64,000 nt of DNA from NCBI RefSeq assembly GCF_900088825.1, contig NZ_LT592171.1:1689187-1753186 (forward strand), given 5' to 3'. The translations under genes were made by a program, and so were the position numbers. The stretch comes from Thiomonas delicata (GTDB lineage Bacteria; Pseudomonadota; Gammaproteobacteria; Burkholderiales; Burkholderiaceae_C). Shown here in pieces: positions 12,294 through 60,277 of the stretch (position 1 is the first letter of the stretch; each line of letters starts with the position of its first letter). The notes beneath the pieces are model-generated. The model was given only the letters and a program-made list of their open reading frames with translations, was not told where the DNA came from and made no database searches.

Positions 12294-12896
12294 ATGTCGC
12301 GTATCCGCCCCGATACACCGTCTCACCCACACGCAGTAGCCAACCACGAACGCCGACGTTTCCTCTCGGCCGCGGCCGGCATTCTGGCCGCGGGAAGCGG
12401 CGTCGCCGCCCGACCGGCCTTCGCCCAGACACGCGCCTCCAGCGCTGAGCGCGCGCTCAACGTGCACAACCTGCACACCGGCGAAACCCTGCGCACCGTC
12501 TATTGGGCGCAAGGCGTGTACCTTCCCGAATCGCTCGCCGAGGTCAACCACCTGCTGCGCGATTTCCGCAACAACGAGACCAGGGCCATCGCCCCCTCGC
12601 TGCTCGATCTGCTGCACGCCATCACCGAACGACTCGGCGCGACCCAGCCCATCCAACTCGTGTCGGGCTACCGCTCGCCCAGCACCAACGCCATGCTGCA
12701 CGCCCGCAGCGCGGGCGTGGCCAAGCACAGCCTGCACATGGACGGCATGGCTGCCGACATCCGCGTTCCCGGGCACGACCTGACGCAACTGCACCGGGTC
12801 GCGCTGTCGTTGCAGGTCGGAGGCGTCGGCCTGTATCCCCGCTCGGATTTCGTGCATGTCGACATCGGCCGGGTGCGCCGCTGGCAAGGTGTCTGA
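12294..12896 (+). CDS. Tat-exported DUF882 / M15-type murein peptidase (YcbK-like)
   Basis: A 200-residue protein with a twin-arginine leader: ERRRFLSAAAG at about 19-29, then a hydrophobic stretch and a cleavage site near AFA-Q (residue 45). The mature part is a DUF882/peptidase M15 zinc enzyme: SGYRSPSTNAML, His148-x6-Asp155 (HMDGMAAD) and His188-x-Asp190 (HVD). Relatives cut peptidoglycan peptides or process its crosslinks. It begins 14 bases after the L,D-transpeptidase, so the two are probably one transcript. Confidence 0.88.
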   Translation: MSRIRPDTPSHPHAVANHERRRFLSAAAGILAAGSGVAARPAFAQTRASSAERALNVHNLHTGETLRTVYWAQGVYLPESLAEVNHLLRDFRNNETRAIAPSLLDLLHAITERLGATQPIQLVSGYRSPSTNAMLHARSAGVAKHSLHMDGMAADIRVPGHDLTQLHRVALSLQVGGVGLYPRSDFVHVDIGRVRRWQGV

Positions 12897-12953
12897 GCGC
12901 GGCGGGCCGCGGGAACTTCGGCGCGGGATGTCCCGTCGCTTCGGTTCGGCAAC

Positions 12954-12995
12954 TTGATCTCGATCAATCGCGCGCCACGCCAACCCGCCTAGCCT
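12954..12995 (+). promoter_or_regulatory. FNR/ANR-type operator and class II promoter of the 13-15.7 kb operon
   Basis: TTGATCTCGATCAA at 12954-12967 matches the FNR consensus TTGAT-N4-ATCAA at every fixed base. A possible -10 box, TAGCCT, lies at 12990-12995. A start near 13002 would put the operator centre at -41.5, the class II FNR activation position. No good -35 hexamer is visible, as expected when FNR replaces it. The downstream gene starts at 13025. Confidence 0.75.
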
Positions 12996-13024
12996 GACGG
13001 CATGTGTCGGTGTGAGGTGGCGTC

Positions 13025-13678
13025 ATGGATGATCGCTTCCAGGATCGTTTCGCCGCGGGCCGCAAGCTGGCCCAGGCGCTGCAGGCCTATGCGCACCACC
13101 ATGACGTGCTTGTGCTGGCGGTGCCGCGCGGCGGCGTGCCGGTGGGATACGAAGTGGCCAAGGCCTTGGGCGCCGAACTCGACGTGCTCATCGCGCGAAA
13201 GCTCGGATTGCCCGGGCACCCGGAACTCGCCATGGGCGCGATTGCCTCCGGCGGCGCGCTCTATCTCAACCCCGACGTCATCGCGATAAGCGGGGTGTCC
13301 CGGCAGGAGATCGAAGCGGTTCTTGCGGACGAACGCATCGAGTTGCAACGCCGGGAAACCCAGTACCGAGGAGCGCGCCCACCGGTGCGTATCGACGGCC
13401 GCGTGGTCATCGTCGTCGACGACGGCATCGCCACCGGCGCCTCGATGCGGGCGGCCGTCATGGCGCTGCGCTCGCAGCATCCCGACCGCATCGTGGTGGC
13501 CGTGCCGGTCGCTCCGCCCGACGCAAAGCAGCGCCTGGGCGACATCGCCGACGACTTCATCTGCGTCCTCAGCCCCGACCCCTTCTATGCCGTCGGCCAG
13601 TTCTACGACACCTTCGACCAGACCAGCGACGAGGAAGTCCGCCGTCTTCTGGCCAGGTCGCGCGAGGAGACACCGTGA
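13025..13678 (+). CDS. Phosphoribosyltransferase-family protein
   Basis: A 217-residue type I PRTase fold protein. The PRPP-binding loop is VDDGIATGAS at residues 131-140; AVPRGGVPVGYE near residues 32-43 is the other typical stretch, and LDVLIARKLGLPGHPELAMG is characteristic of the stand-alone family. Substrate is unknown. In mycobacteria this domain occurs fused to erythromycin-esterase-like or dienelactone-hydrolase-like domains in hypoxia-induced proteins. Here it is the first gene behind an FNR-type box and its TGA overlaps the GTG of the next gene (GTGA at 13675). Confidence 0.85.
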   Translation: MDDRFQDRFAAGRKLAQALQAYAHHHDVLVLAVPRGGVPVGYEVAKALGAELDVLIARKLGLPGHPELAMGAIASGGALYLNPDVIAISGVSRQEIEAVLADERIELQRRETQYRGARPPVRIDGRVVIVVDDGIATGASMRAAVMALRSQHPDRIVVAVPVAPPDAKQRLGDIADDFICVLSPDPFYAVGQFYDTFDQTSDEEVRRLLARSREETP

Positions 13679-14994
13679 CGCATCCCGCGCTGACCCCGTT
13701 TCTTGCCGTGCGCGACCTCGCGCAAAGGCTGGCCGGCACGCCCGCCGATCATGACGCGCTGCTGGCGATGGCCGAAGGGCGGCGTTTCGTCCTTCTCGGC
13801 GAAGCGACTCACGGCACGCAGGATTTCTACCGCATGCGCGCCGAAATCACCCGCCGGTTGATCGCGGAACAGGGTTTCGACGCCGTCGCGATCGAAGGCG
13901 ACTGGCCCGACGCCTGGCGCGTCAACCGCTACGTGCAGGGCGAAGGCGACGACGACGACGCCTCCGCGCTGGACGACTTCGAGCGTTTTCCCGCCTGGAT
14001 GTGGCGCAACCGGGAAGTCCTCGACTTCGTCGGCTGGCTGCGCGCGCACAACGCCACCAAACCCCGGGCGCAGCGCGTGGGGTTTTATGGCCTCGACCTC
14101 TACAGCCTCTACCGTTCGGCCGACGCGGTGATCCACTATCTCGACCGCATCGACCCGGAACAGGCGGAACTCGGCCGCAAGCGCTACGCGGCCCTCGACC
14201 ACGTGCGCGAGCCCCAGGTCTACGGCTACCAGGCGGCCTTCGGCCAGCGCCCCGACGCTCGCGAAGGCGTCATTGCGCAATTGCTGCAATTGCGCGCCGA
14301 TGCGCAGGCCTACATCGAGCGCAATGGCCTCGCGGCGTTGGATGCGCATTTCTTTGCCGAGCGCAACGCCACGGTGGTCGTTCACGCCGAAGCCTATTAC
14401 CGCGCCATGTTCGGACGGCGCGTCAGCACCTGGAACCTGCGCGACGCCCATATGCGCGACACCCTGCTCGCACTGGCCGACTACCGCGTCCGGCGGGGCG
14501 GCACGGGACGGGTGGTGGTCTGGGCTCACAACTCGCACCTCGGCGACGCGCGCGCCACCGAATCGCATGCGCGGGGCGAATGGAATCTCGGCCAGTTGGT
14601 CCGGCAGGACGTGGGCGACCAGGCCCTGCTGGTGGGCTTCACAACCTATACGGGCCGCGTCTCGGCGGCTTCGCAGTGGGACGGCGACGTCGAGCACAAG
14701 TGGGTCAGGCCGGCGCTGCGCGGCAGCTACGAGCATCTGTTCCACAGCACGGGGCTGGATCGGTTCTTCCTGCCCTTGACCGACGCCGCGGCCGAGCCCC
14801 TGCGCGAGCCCATGCTGGAGCGCGCCATCGGCGTGCTTTATGTGCCGCAGACCGAACGCGCGAGCCATTATTTCGACGCCGCGCTGGCGCGCCAGTTCGA
14901 CGCCGTGTTCCACCTGGACGAAACTGCCGCGCTGGAACCGCTGGATGCGCCGCACCACTGGCACCGGCCGGAACCCGCATTGCCGGTCGCCTGA
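13675..14994 (+). CDS. Erythromycin-esterase-like protein
   Basis: A 439-residue member of the erythromycin esterase/succinoglycan biosynthesis family. Visible motifs are GEATHGT (42-48) and AIEGDWPD (72-79), with conserved histidine and glutamate residues later (for example VWAHNSHLGDARAT). The family includes macrolide esterases, but many chromosomal members have no proven substrate. Its operon position with a PRTase and an alpha/beta hydrolase argues for a stress or dormancy role over antibiotic resistance. The GTG start overlaps the previous stop. Confidence 0.85.
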   Translation: MTHPALTPFLAVRDLAQRLAGTPADHDALLAMAEGRRFVLLGEATHGTQDFYRMRAEITRRLIAEQGFDAVAIEGDWPDAWRVNRYVQGEGDDDDASALDDFERFPAWMWRNREVLDFVGWLRAHNATKPRAQRVGFYGLDLYSLYRSADAVIHYLDRIDPEQAELGRKRYAALDHVREPQVYGYQAAFGQRPDAREGVIAQLLQLRADAQAYIERNGLAALDAHFFAERNATVVVHAEAYYRAMFGRRVSTWNLRDAHMRDTLLALADYRVRRGGTGRVVVWAHNSHLGDARATESHARGEWNLGQLVRQDVGDQALLVGFTTYTGRVSAASQWDGDVEHKWVRPALRGSYEHLFHSTGLDRFFLPLTDAAAEPLREPMLERAIGVLYVPQTERASHYFDAALARQFDAVFHLDETAALEPLDAPHHWHRPEPALPVA

Positions 14995-14996
14995 AC

Positions 14997-15692
14997 ATGG
15001 GCCGCGAAAGCATGCGTCCGCTGCCTGCCGTCATCGACGTCGAGATCCGCACGCGCGACGTGGTGTTGGAAGGCATGCTCGCGCTGCCGGACACGCCATC
15101 CGGCCTCGTCGTGTTTGCCCACGGCAGCGGCAGCAGCCGGTTCAGCCGGCGCAACCGGGATGTCGCCGAAGCCATGCAGGCGGCCGGGCTGGGCACCTTG
15201 CTGTTCGATCTGCTCAGCGCCGAGGAGAACACGCGCGACAGGGTGACGGCCGAGCATCGCTTCGACATTGCGCTGCTTGCGCGGCGCCTGACCGATACGG
15301 TCGACTGGCTGGGCCAGGAGGCGGCGACCCGCGCCCTGCGCATCGGCCTGTTCGGCGCCAGCACCGGGGCGGCGGCGGCCCTGATCACCGCCGCCGAGCG
15401 CCTGCAACGCGTGGATGCGGTCGTCTCGCGCGGCGGGCGCCCCGACCTGGCCGGCGATGCGCTCGGCAGGGTGCGGGCCCCCACGCTGCTCATCGTCGGC
15501 GGCTGGGACCCTGAGGTCATCGCCCTGAATGCGCAGGCGGCGCGCCAACTCACCTGCGCGCACCGCACCGCCATCGTCCCCGACGCGACCCATCTCTTCG
15601 AGGAGCCGGGCAAATTGGAACAAGTCTCCAGGCTGGCCGCCGCCTGGTTTGCAACGTACCTCGCGGCGACGGACAGCCGAGGGGCGCGCTAG
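14997..15692 (+). CDS. Alpha/beta hydrolase, dienelactone-hydrolase-like
   Basis: A 231-residue cytoplasmic hydrolase. The triad is visible: Ser122 in LFGASTGAAAA, Asp171 in VGGWDPEV and His199 in PDATHLFEEPG. An oxyanion-type motif FAHGSGSSR lies near residue 40. The start at 14997 is two bases after the esterase-like gene. Substrate unknown. Proteins like this are linked or fused with PRTase domains in other bacteria, which supports a shared pathway. Confidence 0.8.
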   Translation: MGRESMRPLPAVIDVEIRTRDVVLEGMLALPDTPSGLVVFAHGSGSSRFSRRNRDVAEAMQAAGLGTLLFDLLSAEENTRDRVTAEHRFDIALLARRLTDTVDWLGQEAATRALRIGLFGASTGAAAALITAAERLQRVDAVVSRGGRPDLAGDALGRVRAPTLLIVGGWDPEVIALNAQAARQLTCAHRTAIVPDATHLFEEPGKLEQVSRLAAAWFATYLAATDSRGAR

Positions 15693-15712
15693 GGCTTCCC
15701 GGTCGGGAAGCC
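15693..15712 (+). terminator. Perfect hairpin after the hydrolase gene
   Basis: GGCTTCCCG (15693-15701) and CGGGAAGCC (15704-15712) form a nine-base stem with a two-base spacer directly at the end of the hydrolase gene. There is no T-tract, so it may be an attenuator or RNA-stabilising hairpin between the operon and the CBS gene. Confidence 0.4.
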
Positions 15713-15780
15713 GTCCGCCGGGGGTCTTTCCAGACGGAAGGACAGCCCGACATGGCCCATATCGACGTCAGGAGCACAGC

Positions 15781-16299
15781 ATGAAAGTCAAGGACCTTTA
15801 CACCCGGGGCACGGTGCACATCCCGCGATCACGCACGTTGCAGGAAGCCGCCATCCAGATGCGTGAACAGCATATCGGGGCTCTCGTCGTCACGGATGGC
15901 GCGGCGAACGATCACGTCGCCGGGGTCGTCACCGACCGGGACATGGTGGTCAGGGCGCTCGCCAAAGGCGCAAACCCGGTCGCCACGACGGTTGGCGACG
16001 TGATGACCGAGGGCGTGATGTCCGTCCCTCAAACCACCGATGTCAGCGATGCGATGCAGACCATGTTCAGCCATGGCATACGCAGGCTCGCGGTGACCGA
16101 TGACGACGGCGGGGTGGTCGGCGTGCTGTCCCTGGACGATGTGATCCAGGCCATGAGCCGCGAGCGTCGCAACTCGCCAGCATCGTGCGCAGCGAGCAGC
16201 AGCGGGACCGAACCGGGAGCGTGCAATCGCTCCTGCATCCCTGAGAAGGCCGGGCTGGCGCCGATTCCGGCCGCGCCGCGACCCGCGCTTCGCGCTTGA
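15781..16299 (+). CDS. Two-CBS-domain protein, apparently frameshifted near its C-terminus
   Basis: A CBS-pair protein (residues about 7-62 and 72-128), a nucleotide-sensing module resembling hypoxic response protein 1. AGGAG at 15770-15774 precedes the ATG. After DDVIQAMSRE (residue 128) the frame continues as an unnatural Ser/Pro/Ala-rich tail to 16299. One base away, the DNA from 16164 reads LASIVRSEQQRDRTG and ends at a TGA at 16242-16244, which looks like the native tail. A missing base near 16163, real or a sequencing error, would explain this. The native product would be about 154 residues. Confidence 0.8.
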   Translation: MKVKDLYTRGTVHIPRSRTLQEAAIQMREQHIGALVVTDGAANDHVAGVVTDRDMVVRALAKGANPVATTVGDVMTEGVMSVPQTTDVSDAMQTMFSHGIRRLAVTDDDGGVVGVLSLDDVIQAMSRERRNSPASCAASSSGTEPGACNRSCIPEKAGLAPIPAAPRPALRA

Positions 16300-16329
16300 G
16301 CCGGCTCATGGCGACGCCATGAGCCGGCT
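16299..16329. terminator. Bidirectional terminator between the CBS gene and acs
   Basis: A perfect 14-base stem, AGCCGGCTCATGGC (16299-16312) and GCCATGAGCCGGCT (16316-16329), with a three-base loop. It lies between two convergent genes six bases before the acs stop codon, so it can serve both strands. T-tracts are weak. Confidence 0.65.
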
Positions 16330-16334
16330 TGCGC

Positions 16335-18317
<1,983 letters not shown>

Positions 18318-52281: not shown

Positions 52282-52723
52282 CTAGCCCCCAGCGGCTTGA
52301 GCAGCGATCGCATGCAGGGCCTTGGTCATGAGCAGAATGGGCTGAGCCGAGGGACTAATGTCGTAGCGCTGGGCGAACACAGCAGGGTCGGTGTAGCCCA
52401 ACCAGACGCGATGCTCAGCGTCTTCCCAGACCAGCATTTTCAAAGGTAAACCAAGTCCTGCTTGTTGGTTCATCTGCATCAACTTCGTACCCAAGGCGGG
52501 ATTGCCGAAGATCACCAGCTTGGTAGGCCGGAGTTTGAGCCCCGCCTCGTGCGCCGAACCGCTGTGATCCACGACCGCCACGATATGCAAATGACGTTGC
52601 AGGATCGCGCGTTCCAGATGCTGCAGCGTCTGCGCAACCGTATGCATGCTACGCACTTCAATCACTCGCGGGGCTTGTGCCCATGAACTTTGGAGCAGGA
52701 TAAATGCAGCGACAAAGGCAAAC
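52282..52723 (-). pseudogene. DUF302-family exported protein, 5' end removed by IS3-type element
   Basis: About 146 codons of a DUF302 protein remain. FAFVAAFILLQSSWAQA is the core and cleavage end of a signal peptide, and the mature part has DUF302 features (VVDHSGSAHEAGLKLRP, LVIFGNPALGTKLMQ and MLVWEDAEHRVWLGYTDP). The start codon and first residues are gone: the insertion sequence begins at 52724, and the frame now runs into IS sequence, which supplies a foreign N-terminus. Any protein made would lack a normal leader. DUF302 proteins are often found near metal or redox genes. Confidence 0.75.
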
Positions 52724-52762
52724 TGAACCGCCCCGGGTTTCGTGGAGGCTAGTTGGTTTAAG

Positions 52763-53668
52763 TCATGCCGGAATGGCGTGTTGACTGGCTTGTTGGCGCC
52801 AGTAGTTTGCCTCAGCTTCTGCCGGAGGGATACCCCCAATCGGTTTGAGCAGTCGGGTGTGGTTGAACCAGTGCACCCATTGCAGGGTGGCCAGTTCGAC
52901 GGCTTCCCTGGTTTTCCAGGGTCCGCGGCGGTGAATCAATTCGGCCTTATACAGCCCGTTGATGGTCTCGGCCAGGGCGTTGTCATAGGAGTCTCCTTTG
53001 CTGCCCACGGAGGGCTGGATGCCTGCCTGCGCCAAGCGTTCGGTGTACTTGACGCTGACGTATTGCACGCCTCTGTCCGAATGGTGGACCAAGGCATGGG
53101 CAGCGGGCCGACGCGCGTACAAAGCCTGCTCCAGCGCGTCCATCACGAAATCGGTCTGCATGGATGTGCTCACGCGCCAGCCCACGATGCGTCGGGCAAA
53201 CACGTCGATGACGAACGCCACGTACAGCCAGCCCTGCCAGGTGCTCACATAGGTGAAGTCCGACACCCAGAGCTGGTTGGGTCGCTCGGCTTTGAACACC
53301 CGGTTGACGTGGTCCTGCGGACACGGCGTGCAAGTGTCGGGGACCGTGGTTCGCACCTTCTTGCTCCGCCGCGCACCCTGCAGCCCCAGGCGTTTCATCA
53401 GCCGCTCGACCGTGCAGCGCGCCACCCGGTTGCCCTCGCGGTTCATCTGCAACCAAACCTTGTCAGCTCCATACACCTGCCAGTTGGCGTGCCACACACG
53501 CTGGATGTCGGCAGCCAGCGCATCGTCGCGCTGAGCACGGGCGCTGCGCAACTCGGGGTTGCGATGACGCGCGGCATGGCGCCAGTAACACGACGGGGCC
53601 ATCTGCAGCACTTTGCAGATGGGCTCGACCCCGTGCATGGGGCGGTGCTGGTCGATGAATCGCTTCAA
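52763..53668 (-). CDS. IS3-family transposase OrfB (integrase catalytic part), copy 1
   Basis: A 301-residue DDE transposase. The DDE residues are in [24 protein letters not shown] and [15 protein letters not shown]. The frame lies one base back (-1) relative to orfA and stays open upstream to the slippery heptamer TTTTTTC at 53707-53701, so it is made mainly as an OrfAB fusion by -1 frameshifting. The TTG at 53668 is the first start-like codon in frame. Confidence 0.9.
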
Positions 53669-53988
53669 CTCTTCAAACGGCGGTCGAGCTCCGCCTGGGC
53701 GAAAAAAGCACTCGCCGCTTTGAGGATGTCATTGGCCCGGCGCAATTCCTTGTTCTCGCGCTCGAGTTGTTTGAGGCGTTCACGCTCGCTGCTCGTCAGG
53801 CCGTCGCGCTGGCCTGTATCGACTTCCTCGCGCTTGACCCACTCCAGCAGCGTCTGTGGCACGCAGCCAATCTTGGGGGCCATGGATTCGACTGCGGCCC
53901 ACAGCGAGGGGTACTCGCCTCGGTGCTCCTGCACCATGCGTACCGCGCGCTCGCGCACTTCGGGGGAAAACTTGTTCGTCTTGTTCAT
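53665..53988 (-). CDS. IS3-family OrfA (helix-turn-helix), copy 1
   Basis: A 107-residue DNA-binding protein that recognises the IS ends. The helix-turn-helix lies in the first 60 residues ([18 protein letters not shown]), followed by a leucine-zipper-like stretch ([19 protein letters not shown]). Near its 3' end the codons GCT TTT TTC form a U-UUU-UUC slippery site in the right phase for entry to the orfB frame. Confidence 0.88.
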
Positions 53989-54038
53989 GGCTCCATCTTC
54001 TCAAAGGTTGGAGCCTCCTCAAAACCCGGGGCGGTTCA

Positions 54039-54307
54039 ATGTTTCACTGGGTAAAGTTCCTTTGGGCTGAGTGGAAGGGGGAAACAACTGCATTGCACGA
54101 GTCGCCCCGAGCAAGCGCTAATCAACCGACACCGGAACCTCGGGCAAATTGCCTTGCATGCTTGCCAGTGGATTGGTCGGAACAGGCTAAAGTTCCTGAC
54201 ACCGCGATGGGCATAAAGATGTATCAGCGCGCTACTGCCGATAAGGCGCGCCGCGCCGTGATCGACGAGGATGTGTGGCAGCGACGACCAACGGTGAGAG
54301 GCGAGAG
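54039..54307. other. Short unassigned stretch between the IS3 copy and the IS5-type gene
   Basis: An open plus-strand frame starts exactly at the IS3 border (ATG at 54039) and overlaps the transposase gene, but it resembles no protein I know and begins at a mobile-element junction, so it is probably fortuitous. No left inverted repeat for the IS5-type element could be found here. Confidence 0.35.
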
Positions 54308-58794: not shown

Positions 58795-58918
58795 GCGAGC
58801 TCCCCAACACACGGCGAGACAAGATGCGTGCGTGATCTCGTGTCTCCAATCAATCATCTTTAGATTTTTGATTTCAAAATGAACCGCCCCGGGTTTCGTG
58901 GAGGCTAGTTGGTTTAAG

Positions 58919-59824
58919 TCATGCCGGAATGGCGTGTTGACTGGCTTGTTGGCGCCAGTAGTTTGCCTCAGCTTCTGCCGGAGGGATACCCCCAATCGGT
59001 TTGAGCAGTCGGGTGTGGTTGAACCAGTGCACCCATTGCAGGGTGGCCAGTTCGACGGCTTCCCTGGTTTTCCAGGGTCCGCGGCGGTGAATCAATTCGG
59101 CCTTATACAGCCCGTTGATGGTCTCGGCCAGGGCGTTGTCATAGGAGTCTCCTTTGCTGCCCACGGAGGGCTGGATGCCTGCCTGCGCCAAGCGTTCGGT
59201 GTACTTGACGCTGACGTATTGCACGCCTCTGTCCGAATGGTGGACCAAGGCATGGGCAGCGGGCCGACGCGCGTACAAAGCCTGCTCCAGCGCGTCCATC
59301 ACGAAATCGGTCTGCATGGATGTGCTCACGCGCCAGCCCACGATGCGTCGGGCAAACACGTCGATGACGAACGCCACGTACAGCCAGCCCTGCCAGGTGC
59401 TCACATAGGTGAAGTCCGACACCCAGAGCTGGTTGGGTCGCTCGGCTTTGAACACCCGGTTGACGTGGTCCTGCGGACACGGCGTGCAAGTGTCGGGGAC
59501 CGTGGTTCGCACCTTCTTGCTCCGCCGCGCACCCTGCAGCCCCAGGCGTTTCATCAGCCGCTCGACCGTGCAGCGCGCCACCCGGTTGCCCTCGCGGTTC
59601 ATCTGCAACCAAACCTTGTCAGCTCCATACACCTGCCAGTTGGCGTGCCACACACGCTGGATGTCGGCAGCCAGCGCATCGTCGCGCTGAGCACGGGCGC
59701 TGCGCAACTCGGGGTTGCGATGACGCGCGGCATGGCGCCAGTAACACGACGGGGCCATCTGCAGCACTTTGCAGATGGGCTCGACCCCGTGCATGGGGCG
59801 GTGCTGGTCGATGAATCGCTTCAA
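58919..59824 (-). CDS. IS3-family transposase OrfB, copy 2
   Basis: Residue-for-residue the same as the copy 1 protein as far as could be compared, with all DDE residues. Expressed by -1 frameshifting from orfA. Confidence 0.9.
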
Positions 59825-60144
59825 CTCTTCAAACGGCGGTCGAGCTCCGCCTGGGCGAAAAAAGCACTCGCCGCTTTGAGGATGTCATTGGCCCGGCGCA
59901 ATTCCTTGTTCTCGCGCTCGAGTTGTTTGAGGCGTTCACGCTCGCTGCTCGTCAGGCCGTCGCGCTGGCCTGTATCGACTTCCTCGCGCTTGACCCACTC
60001 CAGCAGCGTCTGTGGCACGCAGCCAATCTTGGGGGCCATGGATTCGACTGCGGCCCACAGCGAGGGGTACTCGCCTCGGTGCTCCTGCACCATGCGTACC
60101 GCGCGCTCGCGCACTTCGGGGGAAAACTTGTTCGTCTTGTTCAT
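59821..60144 (-). CDS. IS3-family OrfA, copy 2
   Basis: Same 107-residue helix-turn-helix protein as in copy 1, with the same U-UUU-UUC slippery heptamer (59863-59857) before its stop. Confidence 0.88.
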
Positions 60145-60277
60145 GGCTCCATCTTCTCAAAGGTTGGAGCCTCCTCAAAACCCGGGGCGGTTCAAAATGC
60201 TCGGCGCCGACACGGCTCATGTCCTGTAAGGACGCCCGCTAGGCGCCACGGGGTATCCCGAACGCCACTCAGGGTGA

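What the first reader, a model, noticed from the sequence alone, without database searches (positions are those of the whole stretch)
12954..16299. FNR-box-controlled PRTase / esterase-like / hydrolase / CBS gene set resembling the mycobacterial dormancy proteins
Seen: a perfect TTGATCTCGATCAA box placed at -41.5 from a plausible start, a GTGA overlap between genes 1 and 2, a two-base gap to gene 3, and a CBS gene next. Known: in Mycobacterium tuberculosis the same domains occur in DosR-regulon proteins, with PRTase plus erythromycin-esterase-like domains in Rv2030c, PRTase plus hydrolase in Rv0571c, and a CBS pair in Rv2626c. Inference: this is an oxygen-regulated module, conserved across phyla under different regulators, acting on an unknown substrate through a PRPP-type chemistry. 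The esterase name is probably misleading.
Basis: partly seen in the sequence, partly recalled or inferred. Interest (0 to 1): 0.78.

Follow-up and report, generated by a model that had tools for sequence, protein, structure and literature searches.

The report
Low-oxygen operon of three linked enzymes
A bacterium appears to switch on, when oxygen runs short, three neighbouring enzymes that many unrelated microbes also keep together and sometimes fuse into one protein, so they very probably share one unknown job; relatives sit among the uncharacterised dormancy proteins of the tuberculosis germ.

Summary
The box TTGATCTCGATCAA (12954-12967) is followed by exactly 22 bp and a -10 hexamer. This composite class II FNR promoter occurs once without mismatch in the 3.84 Mb genome. 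The 22 bp spacing is kept in 8 of 11 distinct loci examined, own included. The genome encodes FNR-type proteins.

The three genes form a unit. Among 80 PRTase loci, the hydrolase lies within 2.5 kb in 38 and the Ere-like protein in 24, same strand; further out, 0 and 1. In 199 other genomes of the phylum, 8 of 8 with the hydrolase and 7 of 7 with an Ere not fused to PIMT also hold the PRTase, found in only 22. PRTase-Ere, PRTase-hydrolase, hydrolase-PRTase and one triple fusion exist.

FNR control is lineage-specific; the CBS gene is a looser fourth member. The Ere protein fails the resistance-esterase cut-offs. The substrate is unknown. I commit to a PRPP-dependent transferase working with two ester or lactone hydrolases in oxygen-starved cells.

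The parts
12954..12967 (+). FNR box TTGATCTCGATCAA, centre at -41.5
12990..12995 (+). -10 element TAGCCT, 22 bp after the box; predicted transcription start about 13002
   Evidence: 22 bp spacing plus TAnnnT in 8 distinct loci; start inferred, not mapped
13014..13019 (+). Shine-Dalgarno-like GAGGTG, 5 bp before the ATG
   Evidence: sequence
13025..13678 (+). type I phosphoribosyltransferase, 217 aa, TT1426 (1WD5) family
13675..14994 (+). Ere-superfamily hydrolase (PF05139), 439 aa, GTG start, GTGA overlap
14997..15692 (+). dienelactone-hydrolase-like serine hydrolase, 231 aa, S122/D171/H199 invariant
15693..15712 (+). 8-bp hairpin GGCTTCCC-GGTC-GGGAAGCC without T run, between hydrolase and CBS gene; role unknown
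15781..16299 (+). CBS-pair protein, 172 aa (residues 1-128 align in relatives; the tail mostly does not), looser fourth member

Best explanation
An oxygen-limitation operon. When oxygen falls, FNR binds at -41.5 (class II) and RNA polymerase transcribes, from about 13002, a PRTase, an Ere-superfamily hydrolase and a serine alpha/beta hydrolase, perhaps reading on into a CBS-pair protein. The three enzymes act on one substrate line. The PRTase is the core: it transfers (or removes) a 5-phosphoribosyl group, with PRPP as donor, on an unknown acceptor, and the two hydrolases open ester or lactone bonds in the precursor or product of that step. It is most likely a salvage or repair route in non-growing, oxygen-starved cells, with the CBS protein possibly reading the adenylate state. 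Shown here: promoter geometry, conserved gene neighbours, fusions, co-occurrence, intact active-site motifs. Inferred: FNR binding and induction, catalysis, direction, salvage role. Not known: the acceptor.
For: Promoter: single exact composite match in 3.84 Mb; spacer length fixed while its sequence diverges, 8 of 11 distinct loci; among the 33 places of the same search are, with 2 mismatches each, one before a haem-copper oxidase subunit I gene (CcoN-like), one before a CcoI-type copper ATPase and one before phosphoketolase; five FNR-type proteins with CX2CX5C and ExxSR. Unit: 38 and 24 of 80 loci with the hydrolase or Ere within 2.5 kb, same strand, 0 and 1 further out; co-occurrence in 199 genomes, hydrolase 8 of 8 (p 6e-9) and Ere without PIMT 7 of 7 (p 8e-8), also when unlinked; 17 of 80 loci fused, plus a triple fusion in Salipiger; partner states on the tree of 93 PRTases need 33 changes. 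Chemistry: PRPP motif DDGxATG invariant; Ere E43, H46, R55, E74, H285, H288 invariant; hydrolase S122, D171, H199 invariant; PRPP synthetase gene overlapping the PRTase-hydrolase fusion gene in Rhodococcus.
Against: No expression, binding or activity data. FNR control is not general: 28 of 36 proteobacterial loci lack a box within 400 bp. Sites with one mismatch also exceed the reversed control in phyla where I expect no FNR (22 against 0 in 46 loci; 42 against 1 in the 36 proteobacterial loci), so only exact boxes and the geometry discriminate; 7 cyanobacterial loci hold 8 exact boxes against 2 reversed. The 8 loci with the geometry form one clade, so it may be one inherited promoter. 35 of 80 PRTase loci have neither hydrolase nor Ere within 2.5 kb. 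PRPP synthetase lies within 5 kb of only 2 of 90 loci. The 80 loci are the best matches to this PRTase, not a random sample. The set is patchy even in the genus: an Ere of this operon's type in 5 of 27 other species, no Ere at all in 7.
Confidence: 0.62

Rival explanations
1. Pyridine-nucleotide branch: the acceptor is a nicotinate-like pyridine, the hydrolases free it from an ester or amide, and the module restores NAD in starved cells.
For: In a Bradyrhizobium locus the hydrolase-PRTase pair lies with nicotinate PRTase, a PRPP-synthetase fragment and PIMT-Ere; pncB2 (nicotinate PRTase, Rv0573c) is described as a DosR-regulon gene of the nrdZ locus (passages in PMC4428469); an Ensifer locus holds PRPP synthetase and an annotated ATP-NAD kinase within 11 kb.
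Against: Nicotinate PRTase was found near 1 of 90 loci only; Pfam gave no match for the annotated ATP-NAD kinase; apart from 1WD5 the PRTase matches solved PRTases only over the PRPP-motif region.
Confidence: 0.12
2. Carboxyl-ester repair: the PRTase phosphoribosylates a carboxylate (protein or small molecule) and the Ere protein and serine hydrolase resolve the ester, as PIMT plus Ere would do for methyl esters.
For: The same Ere domain is fused either to PRTase or to PIMT. Of the 15 Ere genomes of the sample 8 have PIMT-Ere; the 7 without PIMT all hold the PRTase. Pfam confirms PIMT-Ere in a same-genus genome and in Bradyrhizobium.
Against: No known PRTase makes such esters (recalled); the function of PIMT-Ere is itself unknown to me; 4 of the 8 PIMT-Ere genomes also hold the PRTase.
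Confidence: 0.1
3. The PRTase is a PRPP sensor (PyrR-like) that regulates the hydrolases rather than a catalyst.
For: Its profile matches PyrR and other PRTases over the PRPP-motif region; fusions would place a sensor next to an effector.
Against: PPi-loop, RK and PRPP-motif residues are invariant, as expected of an enzyme, though a PRPP binder could keep them too.
Confidence: 0.1
4. Macrolide (antibiotic) inactivation by the Ere protein.
For: Pfam name Erythro_esteras.
Against: EreB 42.5 of 750, EreD 23.8 of 800, EreA 19.4 of 750 bits; its steady partner is a PRTase.
Confidence: 0.02
5. The box is a chance match and the genes are unrelated neighbours.
For: TTGAT-N4-ATCAA with up to 2 mismatches is no more common in the window than chance (12 found, 8.1 expected).
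Against: Exact composite promoter once per genome and conserved geometry; adjacency and co-occurrence.
Confidence: 0.02

Closest known systems
DosR-regulon proteins Rv2030c, Rv0571c and Rv2626c of Mycobacterium tuberculosis
   Same: PMC5309233 calls Rv2030c and Rv0571c not yet characterized.
Low-oxygen-activated (lxa) locus of Burkholderia cenocepacia
   Same: Low-oxygen-induced stress gene set, compared by authors with DosR (passages). PMC9104464 gives TTGATCTCGATCAA as the potential Anr consensus found before the cytochrome bd oxidase cluster of strain H111.
   Different: 'phosphoribosyl' and 'erythromycin' do not occur in the main text of PMC6127331. This module stands alone: the nearest of the 6 Usp matches of the genome is about 114 kb from the window. 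The lxa sequence itself was not compared.
TT1426 (PDB 1WD5), deposited as a hypothetical protein
   Same: Only full-length solved relative found, E 2e-43 (phmmer) and 2e-63 (profile).
   Different: Acceptor unknown to me; one search listing held papers naming it, none of which I opened.
Ere superfamily (EreA/B/C; solved chains 2QGM, 2RAD, 6XCQ)
   Same: GE-xx-H core aligned with EreC and with 2QGM and 2RAD; conserved E, H, R, E, H, H.
   Different: Far below the NCBIfam resistance-esterase cut-offs.
2O2G dienelactone hydrolase
   Same: Closest solved relative of gene 3, E 7e-68.
   Different: No function known to me; in the 199 sampled genomes this subfamily was found only together with the PRTase.

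Membership tests
Class II FNR-dependent promoter | TTGAT-N4-ATCAA centred at -41.5 with a -10 hexamer 22 bp downstream | tested here: met
Class II FNR-dependent promoter | FNR with Fe-S cysteines and ExxSR recognition helix encoded in the genome | tested here: met
   CX2CX5C and ExxSR in 5 of the 10 matches over the cut-off: L125, L126, L127, L132, L133
Class II FNR-dependent promoter | oxygen-dependent, FNR-dependent transcription from 13002 | not testable with these tools
   needs transcript mapping
Type I phosphoribosyltransferase | PRPP motif with acidic pair, and PPi loop | tested here: met
   invariant R35 G36 G37, D132 D133 G134, A136 T137 G138 in 38 rows
Type I phosphoribosyltransferase | phosphoribosyl transfer to an acceptor | not testable with these tools
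   assay needed
Ere superfamily (PF05139) | full-length Pfam match above cut-off and conserved E/H core | tested here: met
   426.5 bits against 26.4
Erythromycin-resistance esterase (EreA/B/D) | score above the NCBIfam cut-off | tested here: not met
   42.5 (EreB), 23.8 (EreD) and 19.4 (EreA) bits against 750, 800 and 750
DLH-like serine hydrolase | Ser-Asp-His triad | tested here: met
   S122, D171, H199 invariant in 30 rows; that these three form the triad is read from the motif, not from a structure
DosR regulon | DosR site upstream | tested here: not met
   no match to the recalled DosR consensus in the window at up to 3 or 5 mismatches, nor to its core
lxa-type low-oxygen island | clustered with universal stress proteins | tested here: not met
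   none of 6 Usp matches of the genome lies in the window

The most novel reading that the evidence does not exclude
PRTase-Ere(-hydrolase) and PIMT-Ere are two versions of one architecture, a group transferase plus an ester-resolving hydrolase. In oxygen-starved cells the PRTase attaches phosphoribose from PRPP to carboxylates of damaged proteins or metabolites, and the hydrolases resolve the ester: a modification or repair cycle that I found in no paper searched, used across phyla, under FNR in some lineages and, by the literature, within the DosR set in mycobacteria.
Probability: 0.1. Interest if true: 0.88.

Novelty: new variant of a known kind. Interest (0 to 1): 0.6.

Why it matters
Here the set lies as three separate genes behind a simple oxygen switch, with close relatives in Pseudoxanthomonas spadix, so each enzyme can be removed and assayed alone. 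The co-occurrence and the triple fusion turn three vague annotations into one testable pathway, and the alternation of PRTase with PIMT as the partner of the Ere domain gives a concrete chemical hypothesis.

Tried and rejected
Rejected: antibiotic resistance; phage or defence origin (no PHROGs match for the three enzymes, no PADLOC match for the four proteins); chance box. Looked for and weak: PRPP synthetase, nicotinate PRTase, Usp, Hsp20, P-type ATPase or ADH as standing partners (2, 1, 1, 5, 6 and 5 of 90 loci within 5 kb; each sought with one or two query proteins, so undercounted: the clustering put an Hsp20 cluster within 4.5 kb in 7 loci and a P-type ATPase cluster in 7). In that clustering the hydrolase and Ere clusters stood far above the rest (35 and 28 loci, next 14; my gene caller was crude and missed some annotated genes). 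DosR-like sites in actinobacterial loci: within 1 kb upstream in 2 of 15, exact core in 1. No terminator-like or sigma-70-consensus site in 12800-16400. Literature: no held paper has all of 'erythromycin esterase', 'dienelactone hydrolase' and 'phosphoribosyltransferase'; related searches gave none, three papers naming Rv2030c, or papers that looked unrelated in the listing; the library lacks most subscription journals. No structure model was obtained. L003 and L025, and L006 and L027, are the same contigs and are counted once in '8 of 11'.
Full report
OBSERVATION. The box TTGATCTCGATCAA lies at 12954-12967 and is the only exact TTGAT-N4-ATCAA in the window. It is followed by 22 bp and TAGCCT (12990-12995), which places the box at -41.5 for a start at 13002. 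The four frames, the GTGA overlap and the two-base gap are as described. Pfam assigns PRTase, Erythro_esteras, DLH and two CBS stretches. The CBS gene starts 88 bp after the hydrolase stop, behind an 8-bp hairpin without a T run.

PROMOTER. In the whole genome (3,841,141 bases) the exact box occurs twice, with no reversed-control match; with at most one mismatch there are 77 sites against 13 reversed. The composite box-22bp-TAnnnT occurs once without mismatch, here; with up to two mismatches there are 33 places against 7 in the control. I looked downstream of the 30 that became loci and scanned ten of the downstream frames with Pfam. Among them are a haem-copper oxidase subunit I (CcoN-like by eye), a CcoI-type copper ATPase and phosphoketolase; the first two are classical FNR targets (recalled). 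Many of the others are not obvious promoters. Ten matches to the Crp-type HTH pass the Pfam cut-off, one of which (L134) looks like an Lrp-type protein; five carry CX2CX5C and ExxSR. Upstream of the related operons (13 rows, 11 distinct loci with own) the box plus 22 bp plus TAnnnT is found in 8: own, G013, G020, G021, G006, REEB268, Pseudoxanthomonas spadix and HGW-4 (the last with two box mismatches). It is absent within 140 bp in L028, L029 and L031 (L031 has a one-mismatch box at -198). TAnnnT has a frequency of 0.0011 per position in the window. The 8 form one supported group of the PRTase tree (96/87), so the promoter may be inherited once; its spacer sequence has nonetheless diverged while its length has not. 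Wider: 8 of 36 proteobacterial loci have a box with at most one mismatch within 400 bp (0.95 expected), 0 of 53 in other phyla (1.05 expected). Exact boxes anywhere in the 36 proteobacterial loci: 8, against 0.25 by Markov resampling and 0 reversed; in 46 loci of other phyla, cyanobacteria apart, 0. Against this: with one mismatch allowed, other phyla also exceed the reversed control (22 against 0; proteobacterial loci 42 against 1), and 7 cyanobacterial loci hold 8 exact boxes against 2 reversed.

UNIT. Of these 80, 38 have the hydrolase and 24 the Ere protein within 2.5 kb, 17 both and 35 neither, on the PRTase strand in every case; beyond 2.5 kb, 0 and 1 (70 of 80 loci have 2.5 kb on both sides). 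Fusions: PRTase-Ere in 8 of 80, PRTase-hydrolase in 6, hydrolase-PRTase in 3; further ones on plasmids (L104, L106, L108), and a PRTase-hydrolase-Ere protein of 883 aa in Salipiger. Pfam confirms both or all three domains in five of the six fusions scanned (P0005, P0006, L042, L091; L106); the hydrolase half of L092 was seen by tblastn only. In the genus, the order PRTase-Ere-hydrolase-CBS is kept in the 5 other genomes that have this Ere (one cut at the PRTase); 27 other species were searched, 15 have only a 43-49% Ere, 7 have none at E 1e-20. In an evenly drawn sample of 200 genomes of the same phylum (own included), the other 199 hold PRTase 22, Ere 15, hydrolase 8 at E 1e-40: PRTase with Ere 11 (p 2e-9), PRTase with hydrolase 8 of 8 (p 6e-9), Ere with hydrolase 4 (p 0.001). 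Fetching the 15 Ere regions shows two classes: 8 with PIMT in the same frame (4 with PRTase in the genome, p 0.006) and 7 without (7 with PRTase, p 8e-8). None of the 8 PIMT-Ere genomes has the hydrolase, so the hydrolase does not merely track large genomes, though size was not matched. Only 15 (Ere: 8) candidates a genome were scored, so misses are possible. Several pairs co-occur unlinked. Partner states on the tree of 93 PRTases need 33 changes (shuffled mean 46.5), with 28 of 89 inner branches open and the bootstrap not settled.

CHEMISTRY. The PRTase keeps the PPi loop, RK and PRPP motif. Its profile covers only 1WD5 in full and other solved PRTases over the PRPP-motif region alone, so the acceptor site is unlike any solved enzyme of known acceptor as far as sequence shows. 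The Ere protein keeps E43, H46, R55, E74, H285 and H288 (that these positions matter in EreB is recalled) and fails the resistance-enzyme cut-offs. The hydrolase keeps S122, D171 and H199. The PRPP synthetase gene overlaps the Rhodococcus fusion gene by four bases and lies in the Bradyrhizobium and Ensifer loci, but this is rare overall (within 5 kb in 2 of 90).

LITERATURE. Seen as passages only: PMC4410610, PMC5309233, PMC2275270, PMC4428469, PMC8044303 (M. tuberculosis), PMC9104464, PMC3759415, PMC6127331 (Burkholderia), PMC8939145 (graspetides; an Ere relative of unknown function). They support hypoxic or DosR-set expression of Rv2030c, Rv0571c and Rv2626c, with two reservations: Rv0571c changed less than two-fold in one data set and one review lists Rv2030c as DosR-independent. 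PMC5309233 states that Rv2030c and Rv0571c are uncharacterised. No held paper has the three enzyme names together.

VERDICT. It is a conserved, FNR-type-promoter instance of an uncharacterised PRPP-linked three-enzyme unit.

Noticed in passing
L007-L021, L023 (same-genus genomes): Most Ere-bearing species of the genus carry a different Ere (43-50% identical); the four read (L010, L018, L019, L023) have a PIMT-like N-terminus, Pfam-confirmed in L010. G013 has both kinds.
   Followed up: partly
G000:C5 about 963-994 kb (L141, L142, L164, L165): Usp genes and a phosphoketolase with a near-perfect FNR box: probably a separate low-oxygen stress cluster in the same genome.
   Followed up: partly
L085: Bradyrhizobium locus holding hydrolase, PRTase, nicotinate PRTase, FtsH, PIMT-Ere and a PRPP-synthetase fragment, with two exact FNR/FixK-type boxes.
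   Followed up: partly
window 52719-54039 and 58875-60195: A direct repeat of 1321 bp at 99.9% identity, probably a mobile element; not identified.
   Followed up: partly
G000:C5:725251 and G000:C4:194409 (L132, L133): Two very similar FNR-like regulators, each with a repeated 135-aa frame about 6 kb before it, suggest a duplicated segment.
   Followed up: no
window 16165-16299: The CBS protein carries a tail of about 44 residues that aligns in G013 only, not in L003-L006, L025 or L027.
   Followed up: no
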